Below, one piece after another: positions 41,292-45,656 of a stretch of 64,000 bases of DNA; the first letter of the stretch is position 1, and the number at the start of each line of letters is the position of its first letter. The stretch spans positions 434,001 to 498,000 of the forward strand of contig NZ_JADPQF010000002.1 in NCBI RefSeq assembly GCF_015687155.1, given 5' to 3'. Source of the DNA: Aliikangiella sp. G2MR2-5 (GTDB taxonomy: Bacteria; Pseudomonadota; Gammaproteobacteria; Enterobacterales; Kangiellaceae). A program made the position numbers and the translations under genes. The notes beneath the pieces were generated by a model. The model saw nothing but the letters and a program-made list of their open reading frames with translations, searched no databases and had not been told where the DNA came from.

Positions 41292-42116
41292 TTAATTTTT
41301 AATGCTTTCTAGCCATCGCAGGAAAAATTCATTGATCGGATGAATACCAGAAACTTTTTTCTCCAGCTTTTTCACCCTGCTATCAACGTCAGCAAGCTCC
41401 TGCTCAATGAACTCATTGAGCACCGCTACTTTAGGTTGTAGCTGGCTTTCCTTAGCCTCAATTTTTTTCGCCAACAGCTCTTCAATCACCGCTTTCACCT
41501 CGGCTTCGACACACATGCTATCCAGCAGTTCTCTGAAACGCATTGGCACTTGCGTTTGTCTCTGTTCTATCCAGCGCATCGCCAGCAGAGGTCTAAGCAC
41601 GTAGAAGTACTTCTTGGTTTTGACCATATCCTGCTTTAAGTGCTCGCGATAGTTACCGCTTGCCATATGCTGGTAATGATAAAAACTCGCCCTTGGACAT
41701 AGATATTCGTCAGCCAGTTGCGACAACTGTCGCCTGAACCCTTCCGCTGCACTGTAGACAATAGGTGAAGCTATCCACTCGAGTAATGTAGGGTTGGATT
41801 TTCGCAGCAGTTTTAAAGCCTTCTGCAGTTCCCAACCGTTAATATCCAGATCATCGACTATCGGTAATTCGATAACGTCGCGTTGATGTTCCTTATCCAC
41901 CCTTAAATACCACTCAGATTGGTGAATATAGATAAACCTGACATCGTAATCACTATCGGGTGATGCAAAATCCCAGGCTCTGCTGCCTGACTCACAAGCA
42001 TAGAGCACCTTGACCTGGTATTCCTCTTCTATCTGCACAAGCTTTTGAGCGATTTCTTTTTCGATAGCTGTATCAATCGCTGGTTCGATAGTTTCCTCTA
42101 CTATACTTGTTTTCAT
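41292..42116 (-). CDS. Pol-beta-type nucleotidyltransferase (RlaP/COG3541-like)
   Basis: 274 aa. Nucleotidyltransferase signature GSRAWDFASPDSDYDVRFIY gives the GS motif and the catalytic DxD aspartates. This family is often found beside RNA ligases and is predicted to act on RNA ends, for example adding nucleotides or capping during repair. It is located between slipin and rtcB on the same strand, 79 bp before rtcB. The exact reaction is not established. Confidence 0.85.
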   Translation of the reverse strand: MKTSIVEETIEPAIDTAIEKEIAQKLVQIEEEYQVKVLYACESGSRAWDFASPDSDYDVRFIYIHQSEWYLRVDKEHQRDVIELPIVDDLDINGWELQKALKLLRKSNPTLLEWIASPIVYSAAEGFRRQLSQLADEYLCPRASFYHYQHMASGNYREHLKQDMVKTKKYFYVLRPLLAMRWIEQRQTQVPMRFRELLDSMCVEAEVKAVIEELLAKKIEAKESQLQPKVAVLNEFIEQELADVDSRVKKLEKKVSGIHPINEFFLRWLESIKN

Positions 42117-42187: not shown

Positions 42188-43360
42188 CTAAACATCCAAC
42201 TCATTAAAAGATAATGTGTTGTTCATCAAACCGTTGAGTCCGCCGTAGACTTTAATGCTATCGACTTTTTCAGCGATTTTTTCCAGAGACTCAAGCTCTT
42301 TCAAACGCATTAACGTTGGGTTGTTTTCCATCATTTTGGCGGTGTTATGCAAGCTTCTGGTCGCTGCGGTTTCTTCACGACGTTTAATCACGTTTGCTTC
42401 TGCCGCTTTTTGCGCTTCAACAACCTGATTTAGGATCGCTTTCATTTCACCGGGTAAAATAATATCTTTCACACCAACACGTTCCAGCTTGACGCCAACT
42501 TCGGTCAAATCAGCTTCAACCAGCTCTCTAACGGTTTCGTTGATATACAACTTGTCCACCAACAATTCGTCGAGCGTTCTGGTACCAACCGCTTCCCTTA
42601 ACGCCAGCTGCATGGTTTTGTAAATGTAATCATAAACATCTACCACTTTTTCAGCTGCCTGTCTGACATCAACCAGTCGAGTATGCGCAGTCAGGTTAAT
42701 TCTCAAGCTCACTCTATCTTTGGTCAGGATTTCCTGACCGGAAATTTCGTTTGCCTGCGTTTTGGTTTCATACAATTTAACTTCAACTTCCTGAAGCAAT
42801 CGCCAGAAACCGTATTTACCTGGTTCGAGCATTCTTTCCAGTTTGCCATCGAGGTATAAAAGACCAATCTGATCACTGGAAACCAGCACTTCAGCAACAG
42901 GCACCACCGCTTTGGTTCTCGCGGTTTTAATCAGAGACGTTGCAGTATTGGCATTACGTCTGTTAATTTCGGTGACCAGCTCACTGGTAACGTCTACGTT
43001 ATCTTTAATATTGATACGCTCCAGTCTCGCTTCACCGGCATCTTTCCATACAAAAACACGCTCACCAGGGACGACAATGCCCATCAATTGCTCGTTCATA
43101 TAAAACAGACCGACCTCATCGTTGGCAATTGTCCAGTCGTGCAGCAACTCGGCAATTTGCGGAAATTGGCTAACACGGGTTTTGGCAAATTTTTCTGTGT
43201 AGTACATGGTACTGATATCAAAAATTTCGAAGGTTACTTCATTTTTCAGATCCCAGATGGAATGTTTTCCCTGAGCTAACACTCGCTCAAATTGCTTGTT
43301 ACGCATCAGGTAAGCTTTCTGATTTTCAGCCAGTACCAGAGTTTTTCGTAAACCAAACAT
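42188..43360 (-). CDS. Slipin (SPFH/Band 7) family protein
   Basis: 390 aa. Prohibitin/stomatin-like SPFH domain with the TKDRVSLRINLTA region and a C-terminal coiled-coil segment (NQVVEAQKAAEANVIKRREE). Unlike membrane slipins, no N-terminal transmembrane helix is apparent; it starts MFGLRKTLVLAENQKAYLMR. Soluble slipins of this type are recurrent partners in rtcB/rtcR loci and may scaffold the repair enzymes. It is the first protein gene after the sigma-54 promoter and tRNA-like sequences. Confidence 0.85.
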   Translation of the reverse strand: MFGLRKTLVLAENQKAYLMRNKQFERVLAQGKHSIWDLKNEVTFEIFDISTMYYTEKFAKTRVSQFPQIAELLHDWTIANDEVGLFYMNEQLMGIVVPGERVFVWKDAGEARLERINIKDNVDVTSELVTEINRRNANTATSLIKTARTKAVVPVAEVLVSSDQIGLLYLDGKLERMLEPGKYGFWRLLQEVEVKLYETKTQANEISGQEILTKDRVSLRINLTAHTRLVDVRQAAEKVVDVYDYIYKTMQLALREAVGTRTLDELLVDKLYINETVRELVEADLTEVGVKLERVGVKDIILPGEMKAILNQVVEAQKAAEANVIKRREETAATRSLHNTAKMMENNPTLMRLKELESLEKIAEKVDSIKVYGGLNGLMNNTLSFNELDV

Positions 43361-43540
43361 TGTTTTTCTTCCTTCTTTGCTGTGACTTAAAAGTCATTTC
43401 AATAAAATGATTACAAGGGCTGTTAACTTGGTTCAGCCAGCTGCAAGGTAGGACTTAACGAGGAAGCTTCCTGCTTGCTGTAGTTAAGTTGTACTCTGCG
43501 CAATTACCGGACCAGCGGTTAAAGTCTGCTTGTAATCCCT

Positions 43541-43556
43541 TGCCGACAAGTCGGCA
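43541..43556 (-). ncRNA. CUUG-loop hairpin after the Asn tRNA-like sequence
   Basis: On the minus strand TGCCGA-CTTG-TCGGCA forms a 6-bp stem closed by a stable-type CUUG tetraloop, 10 nt beyond the encoded CCA of the tRNA-like sequence. No T-run follows, so it looks like a processing or exonuclease barrier rather than a terminator. The next 180 nt before slipin (43361-43540) holds further pairs: AGGAAGCTTCCT inside ACTTAAC...GTTAAGT and GGCTG/CAGCC. Confidence 0.5.
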
Positions 43557-43566
43557 CTTTCTAACT

Positions 43567-43643
43567 TGGTGTTTAAGGTGGGACTCGAACCCACAACCAA
43601 CAGATTAACGGTCTGCTACTCTATCCAATTGAGTTACTTAACA
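43567..43643 (-). tRNA. tRNA-Asn(GUU)-like sequence with encoded CCA, atypical
   Basis: Minus strand. D-stem ACTC/GAGT with GG in the loop, anticodon stem GCAGA/TCTGT (one G-U), loop CCGTTAA giving anticodon GUU, T-arm GTGGG-TTCGAGT-CCCAC, discriminator A and encoded CCA. Two features argue against a normal decoding tRNA: position 33 is C instead of the near-universal U, and acceptor pairs 1-72 and 2-71 are mismatched (only five pairs form). It overlaps the preceding Glu-like sequence by 2 nt and lies between a sigma-54 promoter and slipin-rtcB, so it probably belongs to the RNA-repair transcript. Confidence 0.75.
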
Positions 43644-43714
43644 TTTAGGCAGGAATCGAACCTGCGACAATTAGCGTGAAAGGCTAATGCTCTACCGGAC
43701 TGAGCAACTAAATT
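43642..43714 (-). tRNA. tRNA-Glu(UUC)-like sequence, no CCA
   Basis: Minus strand. Acceptor AATTTAG/CTAAATG pairs at six of seven positions, D-stem GCTC/GAGC with GG loop, perfect anticodon stem TTAGC/GCTAA with loop CTTTCAC (anticodon UUC), T-arm GCAGG-TTCGATT-CCTGC. There is no discriminator plus CCA: the acceptor runs directly into the next tRNA-like sequence, sharing 2 nt. The acceptor is AU-rich, unlike a bona fide tRNA-Glu. It is the first structured element encountered before the Asn-like unit in the rtc transcript. Confidence 0.72.
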
Positions 43715-43867: not shown

Positions 43868-43883
43868 TACAAGGCGCGTGCCA
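43868..43883 (-). promoter_or_regulatory. Sigma-54 (-24/-12) promoter of the RNA-repair operon
   Basis: The minus strand reads TGGCACGCGCCTTGTA, matching TGGCACG-N4-TTGCW at every defined position but one (T for C next to the last). GG and GT fall at the required 12-nt offset. It points toward the tRNA-like sequences, slipin, nucleotidyltransferase and rtcB. RtcR, encoded divergently, is a sigma-54 activator, so it is the expected activator here. Transcription should begin near 43857. Confidence 0.85.
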
Positions 43884-43993
43884 GTTTTTGAAAAATGGTC
43901 GAAAATATTTTTTAACTCATTGTATATAAAGGATTTATTTTTATATTTCTGCTTTTAGCAAGAGCAGCAAGCTTATTGAAGAATTTTTTTGAA

Positions 43994-44009
43994 ATATCCT
44001 GTAGGATAT
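43994..44009. promoter_or_regulatory. Palindrome, candidate RtcR upstream activator site
   Basis: ATATCC-TGTA-GGATAT lies about 120 bp upstream of the sigma-54 promoter and 34-49 bp before the rtcR ATG. Both the distance and the symmetry suit an enhancer-binding protein site, which could also give autoregulation of rtcR. Confidence 0.4.
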
Positions 44010-44042
44010 ATCTATATCTTTATAGAAATATATGCATCACTT

Positions 44043-45656
44043 ATGTCAGGCAAACGAATAGCATTCAGTATTCTGGGCACGGTAAAAGACTTTGTCGGCC
44101 GCAAAAAAGACCGCTGGCAGCGCTGGCGACCCAATGTCGCCTTGTGTTATCAGGACGATCTGCCGATAGACGAGCTACATTTGATCCATGAATCTCGCAG
44201 TAGCCGCCTCGCCGATAAGGTCATTCTGGATATCAACGAAATCTCGCCGCAAACCAAAGTCGTTCACCATGTAACCGAGTTCGAAAATCCATGGGATCTG
44301 GAAGAGGTTTACGCCAAGCTATTTGATATCTGCGATCAACACCCATTTCAGCCTGAGAAAAATGAATACCTGTTTCATATTACAACCGGTACCCATATCG
44401 CCCAGATTGTTTGTTTCCTGCTGGCGGAAAGCCGAATATTTCCGGGCAAGCTGATCCAGACCTCTCCGGCCAAAGGAGACAACAAAGCACTGGGAACTTA
44501 TCAGGTTATCGATTTAAATCTGAGTAAATACGATAAAGTCGCGGCCCGCTTTAAACAGAAGCAGTTGCAGGGCACCGAGTTTCTGAAAGGCGGTATAGCA
44601 ACCAGAAACAAAGCCTTTAACCATATGATCGATCAGATTGAGCGAGTCGCCATCCGCTCGAAGGCCTCCATTCTGCTCACCGGTCCAACTGGCGCCGGTA
44701 AGTCGCAACTGGCACAACGGATTTTTGATTTAAAGCATTTGCGAAAACAGGTTGAAGGCAGCTTTGTCGCGGTTAACTGTGCGACCCTGCGTGGTGACAA
44801 TGCAATGTCGGCTTTATTCGGCCATGTTAAAGGCGCTTTTACCGGTGCCCAGAATAAGCGCGAAGGTTTTCTGGTCAGTGCCGACTGCGGCGTTCTATTT
44901 CTCGATGAAATCGGAGAACTGGGACTGGATGAACAGGCCATGCTGCTGCACGCGCTGGAAAACAAAAGCTTTTATCCGGTGGGCGCCGATAAAGAAGTTT
45001 GCTCTGACTTTCAGCTGATTGCCGGAACTAATCGCGATCTGCAACAACAGGTTAGCGAAGGGAAATTCCGAGAAGATCTGCTGGCGCGAATCAATTTATG
45101 GACCTATCAGCTCCCCGGACTGGCTGACCGGCGCGAAGATATTGAGCCCAATATTGAATTTGAACTGAGACTATTTGAAGCCAAAGAAAATTTGCGGGTT
45201 GAATTTAATGCCGAAGCGAAAAAGGCTTTCCTCAAATTTGCCATGTCGCCACAATCAAGCTGGCAGGGTAATTTTCGCGATCTTAACGCTGCGATTTTGC
45301 GCATGAGTACACTGGCCGAAGGGGGCAGAATTGGGGTGGAAGATGTCAGTCAGGAAGTATCCCGGTTAACCCAAAGCTGGCGAAATCCTGAGGAAAAACT
45401 TAATAGAGTCAAACTGGAAAACTACCTGAATGCTGAACAGCTGGAAAACCTTGATCGCTTTGAAGTTGAACAGCTGAGCTATGTGATTGGCGTCTGCCAA
45501 AAGCATTCGAGCATGGCTGCGGCCGGCCGGTATCTTTTTAATAAAAGTCGCGAATCAAAAAGCATGGTAAACGACTCCAGTCGACTGCAGAAATATCTGG
45601 CTCGTTATGGATTGAAATGGAGTGATTTGAATCGATTTACCTGGCGCTCTACCTGA
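44043..45656 (+). CDS. rtcR: RtcR, sigma-54-dependent activator of RNA repair
   Basis: 537 aa from the ATG at 44043 (MSGKRIAFSILGTVKDF), which aligns with known RtcR starts; a TTG at 43989 would add 18 residues across a palindrome. The N-terminal ~180 residues are a CARF domain that senses RNA-derived ligands. The AAA+ domain has Walker A GPTGAGKSQL, the sigma-54 contact loop GAFTGA and Walker B VLFLDEIGELG. A C-terminal Fis-type DNA-binding region follows. It is divergent from the repair genes it should activate. Confidence 0.96.
   Translation: MSGKRIAFSILGTVKDFVGRKKDRWQRWRPNVALCYQDDLPIDELHLIHESRSSRLADKVILDINEISPQTKVVHHVTEFENPWDLEEVYAKLFDICDQHPFQPEKNEYLFHITTGTHIAQIVCFLLAESRIFPGKLIQTSPAKGDNKALGTYQVIDLNLSKYDKVAARFKQKQLQGTEFLKGGIATRNKAFNHMIDQIERVAIRSKASILLTGPTGAGKSQLAQRIFDLKHLRKQVEGSFVAVNCATLRGDNAMSALFGHVKGAFTGAQNKREGFLVSADCGVLFLDEIGELGLDEQAMLLHALENKSFYPVGADKEVCSDFQLIAGTNRDLQQQVSEGKFREDLLARINLWTYQLPGLADRREDIEPNIEFELRLFEAKENLRVEFNAEAKKAFLKFAMSPQSSWQGNFRDLNAAILRMSTLAEGGRIGVEDVSQEVSRLTQSWRNPEEKLNRVKLENYLNAEQLENLDRFEVEQLSYVIGVCQKHSSMAAAGRYLFNKSRESKSMVNDSSRLQKYLARYGLKWSDLNRFTWRST

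What the first reader, a model, noticed from the sequence alone, without database searches (positions are those of the whole stretch)
43567..43714. Two back-to-back, defective tRNA-like sequences inside a sigma-54-driven RNA-repair operon
A Glu(UUC)-like and an Asn(GUU)-like cloverleaf lie head to tail, sharing 2 nt, between a sigma-54 promoter and the slipin-nucleotidyltransferase-rtcB genes, on the operon strand. They keep arms and anticodons but have flaws: C33, mismatched acceptor tops, no CCA on the first. Established: RtcR activates sigma-54 transcription in response to damaged tRNA, and a tRNA-like module (YrlA) occurs in the Salmonella rsr-yrlBA-rtcBA locus. Inference: these RNAs may be decoys for tRNA-cleaving toxins (anticodon nucleases acting on Asn or Glu tRNA), repair substrates, or RtcR signal sources. 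Whether this exact pair has been described I cannot tell.
Basis: partly seen in the sequence, partly recalled or inferred. Interest (0 to 1): 0.88.

Follow-up and report, generated by a model that had tools for sequence, protein, structure and literature searches.

The report
tRNA-mimic RNAs ahead of slipin genes
The two odd tRNA-like sequences are real and belong to a family of bacterial RNAs that keep the shape of a tRNA but often not its decoding parts, and that sit just ahead of a membrane-protein (slipin) gene linked to RNA repair, where some other bacteria keep a different tRNA mimic.

Summary
In detail: two head-to-tail cloverleaves (43567-43643 Asn-like, 43641-43714 Glu-like, minus strand; Rfam tRNA 54.6 and 54.3 bits) lie between a sigma-54-type promoter (43868-43883) and slipin-RlaP-rtcB, divergent from rtcR. 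They are not chance. Of 68 loci with this slipin subfamily across Pseudomonadota, 58 have a cloverleaf upstream on the slipin strand by ARAGORN, 63 with a covariance model added; shuffled sequence gives 0-3 of 68. The cloverleaf covaries strongly. Decoding features are not kept: U33 in 27 of 49 seven-base loops (34 of 34 ordinary tRNAs of this genome), some tetraloops, CCA encoded in 20 of 58. Among close relatives the anticodon loop is the fastest-changing part. The four RtcR loci with Rsr instead of slipin carry YrlA or YrlA-like RNAs, a permuted tRNA mimic (two above Rfam's cut-off, two below). Best reading: a non-decoding tRNA-mimic RNA, the slipin-side counterpart of YrlA, induced with the repair enzymes and acting through its tRNA elbow. 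The anticodon-specific decoy idea is weakened, since some lineages have tetraloops there. New variant of a known kind; how it acts is untested.

The parts
43641..43714 (-). upstream tRNA-like RNA, Glu(UUC)-like, no encoded CCA, 1:72 mismatch
   Evidence: ARAGORN; Rfam 54.3 bits; fold
43567..43643 (-). downstream tRNA-like RNA, Asn(GUU)-like, C33, encoded ACCA, bulged or mismatched acceptor top
   Evidence: ARAGORN; Rfam 54.6 bits; model R1 75 bits (R1, which was trained on both, reports only this one, probably because the two hits overlap); fold
43868..43883 (-). sigma-54-type promoter TGGCACG-N4-TTGTA, 154 bases before the first tRNA-like
   Evidence: 11 of 12 consensus letters; 22 of 60 tested loci have a motif of at least 10 of 12 against 0.52 expected in shuffles
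43361..43566 (-). structured leader between the tRNA-likes and slipin; long bulged stem with an AGC-GGA-GCT hairpin
   Evidence: z -1.76 alone; 7 related loci: 84% of cells paired against 68.9% shuffled, 22 of 35 pairs with double changes
42188..43360 (-). slipin (Band_7/SPFH), first protein gene of the operon
   Evidence: Pfam; alignment A1
41292..42116 (-). RlaP, RNA-repair Pol-beta-type nucleotidyltransferase
   Evidence: Pfam PF10127
39986..41269 (-). RtcB RNA ligase
   Evidence: Pfam PF01139
39517..39999 (-). 160-aa ORF after rtcB, no family match; possible operon member
43989..45656 (+). RtcR activator (CARF-AAA-HTH), divergent; an ATG at 44043 is the likelier start (by eye)

Best explanation
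The pair belongs to a family of non-decoding tRNA-mimic RNAs that travels with one slipin subfamily, often inside RtcR-controlled RNA-repair gene sets, in Pseudomonadota. Shown here: linkage, a cloverleaf kept by compensatory changes, near-invariant D and T arms, loss or drift of decoding features, a sigma-54-type promoter directly upstream in about a third of the loci, and YrlA or YrlA-like RNAs in its place in Rsr-type RtcR loci. Inferred: when tRNA is cut, RtcR turns on the operon; the leader yields one to three tRNA-shaped RNAs plus slipin, RlaP and RtcB; the RNAs are recognised through the tRNA elbow and acceptor by tRNA-acting proteins (nucleases, repair or processing enzymes, perhaps a slipin-anchored assembly) and work as a competitor or scaffold, as proposed for YrlA with Rsr. 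The anticodon loop is not read, so it is free to change.
For: Linkage: ARAGORN (lowered threshold) finds a cloverleaf within 1.5 kb upstream, same strand, in 58 of 68 slipin loci; in the 1,000 bases upstream 57 of 68 against 0-3 of 68 in ten dinucleotide shuffles, 5 of 68 on the other strand, 3 of 68 downstream; at the default threshold 52 of 68 against 0 of 68 ten times. Model R1 adds G074, G330, G940, G050, G419 (42.9-62.4 bits): 63 of 68. RNA selection: 92.3% of cells paired against 64.4% in column shuffles, 473 double-change cells against 140, slides at most 43.1% (rows were picked by a tRNA finder, so biased upward). Not decoders: Fisher tests; tetraloops in Burkholderia, G940, G050, G1045; own Asn and Glu tRNAs exist and are not the closest relatives. 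Regulon. YrlA: L021 77.3 and L058 92.3 bits, above Rfam's 69; L061 66 and L054 37.9, below it; slipin and Rsr in no common region among 42 examined.
Against: No expression, processing or binding data exist here. Five of 68 loci lack a copy: G158, G064 and G726 show at most a weak T arm (14-17 bits), G634 a T arm by eye, and G1041 is a contig edge. Two copies that count lack most of the acceptor stem (G419, G074), and G337 is an ARAGORN call that R1 scores at only 16 bits. 14 of 49 seven-base loops equal an ordinary tRNA loop against 4.6 expected, so in some lineages the loop may still mimic real tRNAs. Loops change faster than flanking DNA in 7 of 9 close pairs, which fits bait diversification as well as freedom from constraint. 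The rest of the RNA is less divergent than its flanks in only 4 of 8 close groups. 38 of 60 loci have no good sigma-54 motif directly upstream. L054's 37.9 bits is close to the 28-31 bits that ordinary tandem tRNAs reach. Elbow binding is inference.
Confidence: 0.5

Rival explanations
1. Anticodon-loop baits or signal sources: the RNAs are cut in their loops by anticodon nucleases, sparing real tRNAs or making the 2',3'-cyclic-phosphate ends that keep RtcR active; loops follow the local nucleases.
For: Anticodon loop is the fastest part: 115 of 242 compared positions differ against 0.06-0.17 elsewhere in close groups; faster than flanks, 14 of 58 against 198 of 2038, P=0.001, or 11 of 58 against 200 of 2040, P=0.03 with another choice of pair. 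14 of 49 loops equal real tRNA loops. Operon regulation by damaged tRNAs is published (PMC7790460, title, abstract start and passages).
Against: 4-6-base and GNRA-type loops in several lineages; U33 often lost; one group (g449) keeps the loop TTTGGG while the body changes. In Salmonella YrlA fragments were not detected when tRNAs were cut (PMC7790460, passage).
Confidence: 0.2
2. Processing or cis-acting leader elements: RNase P and 3' processing cut at the tRNA-likes and set the ends or stability of the slipin mRNA.
For: Found 156-1355 bases upstream of slipin (median 353.5; the count looked only upstream on that strand, controls); followed by a second structured leader RNA in 7 loci; acceptor and elbow are what RNase P reads (recalled).
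Against: One to three copies with different stems; acceptor top pairs often broken; anticodon stem kept by compensatory change, which processing would not need.
Confidence: 0.15
3. Spare, translation-competent tRNAs that replace cut ones.
For: Three slipin loci carry ordinary-looking tRNA arrays beside slipin (G005, G001, G341; 39 of 40 U33); Anabaena switches on a 26-tRNA operon, rtcB and a slipin gene through TrcR (PMC10272220, passages and abstract start).
Against: Loop length, U33, 1:72 and CCA statistics; anticodon turnover within genera.
Confidence: 0.1
4. Decayed tRNA genes or integration-site remnants.
For: Mismatches, missing CCA, T-arm-only remnants in some loci.
Against: Phylum-wide linkage and covariation.
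Confidence: 0.03

Closest known systems
YrlA Y RNA (RF02553) of rsr-yrlBA-rtcBA operons
   Same: tRNA mimic with D, T and acceptor parts in RtcR-controlled repair operons, beside a protein partner; anticodon arm not kept
   Different: YrlA is permuted (T arm, closed acceptor hairpin, D arm, by the Rfam alignment) and partners Rsr; these RNAs are unpermuted cloverleaves beside slipin. The junction hit to RF02553 in the window (37.1 bits, cut-off 69) has weaker parallels at 27.8-31.1 bits in ordinary tandem tRNAs
Phage tRNAs with changed anticodon loops (PMC10264068; title and abstract start in the listing)
   Same: altered anticodon loops in a setting of tRNA cleavage
   Different: those are proposed to escape host nucleases as tRNAs; here loops often cannot decode
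Anabaena TrcR regulon: trn tRNA operon, rtcB, slipin alr0740 (PMC10272220, passages)
   Same: tRNA genes, rtcB and a slipin gene switched on together
   Different: separate loci and a repressor, not RtcR; the passages read do not describe tRNA mimics ('tRNA-like' 0 hits)
paFlo8 (PA14_60630) SPFH gene inside the P. aeruginosa rtc locus (PMC13086221, passages)
   Same: SPFH gene in a locus with RtcA, RtcB and RtcR
   Different: 'tRNA' has 0 hits in that text; the paFlo8 deletion showed no difference in the assays of the passages read. Whether it is of this slipin subfamily was not tested

Membership tests
functional elongator tRNA | seven-base anticodon loop with U33 | tested here: not met
   family: 49 of 58 seven-base by ARAGORN, 27 of those 49 U33; control 34 of 34. 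Window: Asn-like C33, Glu-like U33, both seven bases
functional elongator tRNA | paired 1:72 and CCA end | tested here: not met
   1:72 paired in 40 of 67 aligned rows with letters on both sides (6 more rows gapped) against 33 of 34; CCA encoded 20 of 58 against 34 of 34
functional elongator tRNA | aminoacylation and ribosome use | not testable with these tools
   needs bench work
YrlA (RF02553) | score above Rfam gathering (69 bits) | tested here: not met
   37.1 bits, model positions 26-82 only; ordinary tandem tRNAs 27.8-31.1 bits
YrlA (RF02553) | permuted order and Rsr gene beside it | tested here: not met
   ordinary cloverleaf order; no Rsr in the window region or the other slipin-bearing regions among 42 examined
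RtcR regulon | RtcR gene and sigma-54-type promoter ahead of the RNA | tested here: met
   sequence only; activation itself not tested
cloverleaf tRNA-like fold | four helices kept by compensatory change | tested here: met
   with the caveat that the rows were picked by a tRNA finder
anticodon-nuclease decoy | cleavage in the loop protects tRNAs | not testable with these tools
   loop evidence is mixed

The most novel reading that the evidence does not exclude
The RNA-repair operon encodes its own damage-responsive tRNA mimics whose anticodon loops are under diversifying pressure from each lineage's tRNA-cutting nucleases: cut mimics both spare real tRNAs and make the ends that keep RtcR on, while slipin gathers RNA and enzymes at the membrane.
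Probability: 0.17. Interest if true: 0.92.

Novelty: new variant of a known kind. Interest (0 to 1): 0.76.

Why it matters
It extends the idea that RNA-repair operons carry a tRNA mimic from Rsr/YrlA to a second arrangement with slipin. It suggests a rule (repair operon plus tRNA mimic plus a partner protein) that can be tested by exchanging or deleting the parts, and it gives rtc-linked slipin genes a candidate RNA partner. In 52 of 68 loci a standard tRNA finder at its default threshold calls these RNAs ordinary tRNA genes, so tRNA counts of such genomes may be wrong.

Tried and rejected
YrlA junction: the 37-bit hit across the two tRNA-likes looked like a bridge to YrlA, but ordinary tandem tRNAs of this genome (L162, L163) and the array of G001 (L028) give 27.8-31.1 bits, and three slipin loci 25.5-32.4 bits; not specific enough. 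Antisense loops: loop-complementary 6-mers in the leader occur in 9 of 58 loci against 13.0 with permuted loops, 5-mers in 43 against 39.1, 7-mers in 1 against 1.9; rejected. Phage source: no slipin match in the phage records, one viral-contig locus. PADLOC: among seven window proteins only RtcR had hits. Leader motif GCAAGC-GGA-GCTCC: 13-14 of 14 letters in six loci of the window's order, 12 in G352, shifted in G009, near the shuffled level in most others. A repeat search of the intergenic region gave one 12-base pair.

Rows dropped or chosen: one search dropped exact duplicates and one odd call each in G445 (82 bases) and G907 (83 bases); of its 75 references I left L141:2977-3059 and L149:1102-1175 out of alignment A2 (73 rows). 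The 58 copies still include the odd G445 call, G337 and a copy 1355 bases away (G191). R1 was built from A2 and finds those rows by construction; it was run on 13 of the 68 loci. The Rsr profile was built from L054, L058 and L061, which match by construction. Not all 68 loci were put through Rfam. Close-relative groups (10 groups; 8) and the nine pairs were my choice, the pairs; a different g209 pair weakens P from 0.001 to 0.026. Fetched regions differ in length, so absence of rtcR or Rsr nearby means within what was fetched. The promoter test used 60 loci with at least 150 bases upstream. One search's test of pair 1:72 counted six gapped rows as unpaired (40 of 73); 40 of 67 is the cleaner count. 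Two script errors: tRNA parsing and a mis-indexed promoter filter.

Literature: nine of ten searches used. Burroughs and Aravind 2016 and the Anabaena trn paper are not held, so an earlier mention there cannot be excluded.

Full report
What is there. On the minus strand, from upstream to downstream: a sigma-54-type promoter (43883-43868), a Glu(UUC)-like cloverleaf (43714-43641), an Asn(GUU)-like cloverleaf (43643-43567), a leader of about 200 bases, then slipin, RlaP and RtcB; RtcR runs the other way. They are the only tRNA calls in the 64 kb. The genome (G000, unnamed) has 42 matches to the tRNA model in all. Of these I re-read 34 ordinary tRNAs; they include one Asn(GTT) and two Glu(TTC). 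The Asn-like is closest to a Met tRNA (0.70) and the Glu-like to an Arg tRNA (0.62), not to their namesakes.

Relatives. RtcR was sought in 99 relatives (19 with a match) and 369 genomes of the class (15); the slipin in 394 genomes of the order (30), and as a profile in 369 of the class (21) and 398 of the phylum (23), sets that overlap. This gives 68 distinct slipin loci. ARAGORN at lowered threshold puts a cloverleaf upstream on the slipin strand in 58 of 68, median distance 353.5 bases. Controls: 57 of 68 in 1,000 bases upstream against 0-3 of 68 in ten shuffles; 52 of 68 against 0 of 68 in ten at the default threshold; other strand 5, downstream 3 at the lowered threshold, the latter being loci with tRNA arrays. 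A covariance model from 73 copies, run on 13 loci, finds five more (63 of 68), of which G419 and G074 lack most of the acceptor stem; it gives G337, counted from ARAGORN, only 16 bits. G158, G064 and G726 show a weak T arm alone (14-17 bits), G634 a T arm by eye, and G1041 ends 92 bases upstream. Named relatives with a copy: Photobacterium sp. GJ3 (two in tandem) and Burkholderia cenocepacia, stagnalis, arboris and multivorans.

It follows slipin rather than RtcR. In some genomes the order is rtcB, rtcA, tRNA-like, slipin, as in G001, and in others slipin and its tRNA-like have no RtcR in the fetched region (L101-L105). Among 42 regions examined, slipin and Rsr share none. By my count regions hold both RtcR and slipin, and 20 of these have a tRNA-like; L038, L064, L106 and L107 do not. 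The four RtcR-Rsr regions all match YrlA: L021 77.3 bits and L058 up to 92.3 are above Rfam's 69; L061 up to 66 and L054 37.9 are below, though both show the permuted order by eye. Regions with neither slipin nor Rsr show no tRNA-like by R1, apart from L023, whose contig end carries the same tRNA-like as the slipin contig of that genome, and tRNAs called ordinary in L063 and L066.

Selection on the fold. RNAalifold finds the cloverleaf without being told it, 19 of 20 pairs with compensatory changes. With 21 pairs, 92.3% of cells pair against 64.4% in shuffles and at most 43.1% when slid. D stem and T loop are nearly invariant; acceptor and anticodon stems vary with compensation. The rows were picked by a tRNA finder, which favours paired stems.

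Not decoders. Of 58 copies nearest slipin, 49 have seven-base loops, seven six and two eight by ARAGORN; 27 of the 49 have U33; CCA is encoded in 20 of 58. Ordinary tRNAs of G000: 34 of 34 on each. Array tRNAs of three slipin loci: 40 of 40 seven-base, 39 of 40 U33, 38 of 40 CCA. Pair 1:72 is formed in 40 of 67 rows with letters on both sides against 33 of 34. ARAGORN counts stem bases into some short loops; by eye two g316 loops are five bases (TACCA, CACCA) and the arm ends in a tetraloop in G050 (UUUU) and G940 (GCAA), G1045 (GCGA) and B. cenocepacia and B. arboris (GAAA). GG in the D loop and TTC in the T loop are kept in 58 of 58: the elbow stays.

Loop evolution. In ten close groups, loop positions differ in 115 of 242 comparisons, anticodon stem 21 of 360, acceptor 30 of 504, D arm 85 of 706, T arm 70 of 612, variable loop 30 of 180 (pairs not independent, g316 dominates). 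Against flanks, the loop is faster in seven of eight groups and slower in g449; in nine disjoint pairs 14 of 58 against 198 of 2038 (P 0.001), or 11 of 58 (P 0.03) with another pair, faster in 7 of 9. The rest of the RNA changes less than its flanks in four of eight groups only. So the loop is at least free and possibly driven.

Regulation. A motif with at least 10 of 12 sigma-54 consensus letters lies 100-214 bases before the 5'-most tRNA-like in 22 of 60 loci; 0.52 expected. It includes G011 and G401, whose rtcR lies on another contig. The other 38 loci do not reach that score; in some the tRNA-like lies inside a longer operon.

Mechanism. I favour a tRNA mimic that works through elbow and acceptor, because those parts are what the family shares and because YrlA, its counterpart in Rsr operons, is described as resembling the D, T and acceptor arms (PMC8394870 passages). 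Hughes et al. suggest that the YrlA tRNA-like domain could be a competitive inhibitor of the nuclease and did not detect YrlA fragments (PMC7790460 passages). Whether the mimic competes, scaffolds, or is a substrate is open.

Known or not. Full-text searches for RtcR with slipin, RtcB with slipin, RtcR with tRNA-like, tRNA array with RtcB, RNA repair with anticodon nuclease, YrlA, tRNA decoy (15 of 94 listed) and RtcB or SPFH terms (25 of 326 listed) gave no description of these RNAs in the listings and passages I saw. PMC13086221 notes an SPFH gene in the P. aeruginosa rtc locus and has no hit for 'tRNA'. Only open-licence papers are held, and a key review was not readable.

Noticed in passing
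L025 (G005), L028 (G001), L137 (G341): Large arrays of ordinary-looking tRNAs on the slipin strand beside slipin, in addition to tRNAs elsewhere in the genome (54, 50 and 35 tRNA-model matches in all). Looks like an emergency tRNA bank linked to RNA repair, like the Anabaena trn operon.
   Followed up: partly
window 43361-43566 and the same place in L098, L099, L027, L035, L031, L036: A second structured RNA between the tRNA-likes and slipin, with 22 of 35 pairs covarying in 7 loci and a conserved AGC-GGA-GCT hairpin; no Rfam match in the window.
   Followed up: partly
L058 4963-5811, L061 7990-8484: Four and three YrlA matches in a row between Rsr and RtcB; two L058 copies keep ACCA in the loop of the acceptor hairpin, as if a tRNA's two ends had been joined.
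   Followed up: partly
L183 4466-6919 (E. coli pSTEC639_1), L184 (Citrobacter freundii): Slipin-RlaP locus in 1617 of 5426 complete E. coli genomes (at least 80% of the query), with a sigma-54-type motif (by eye) and an RNA reduced to a T arm plus a hairpin ahead of slipin.
   Followed up: partly
L187 3631-3705 (Subdoligranulum variabile, Bacillota): Weak tRNA-like (19 bits) upstream of a slipin outside Pseudomonadota.
   Followed up: no
L101, L102, L103: Complete-looking Lys(UUU) and Asn(GUU) tRNA genes just upstream of the tRNA-like and slipin in three genomes of one genus; the Lys copy of L101 carries an insertion.
   Followed up: no
L073 (G050): The slipin reading frame contains one TAA.
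   Followed up: no
L056 5218-5289 (G397): A 72-base slipin-like fragment (75% identity) in an RtcR-RtcB region without an intact slipin match.
   Followed up: no
G737 contigs C17, C25, C35, C42: Four matches each for slipin and the tRNA-like in one genome, with identical scores; real duplication or assembly copies.
   Followed up: no
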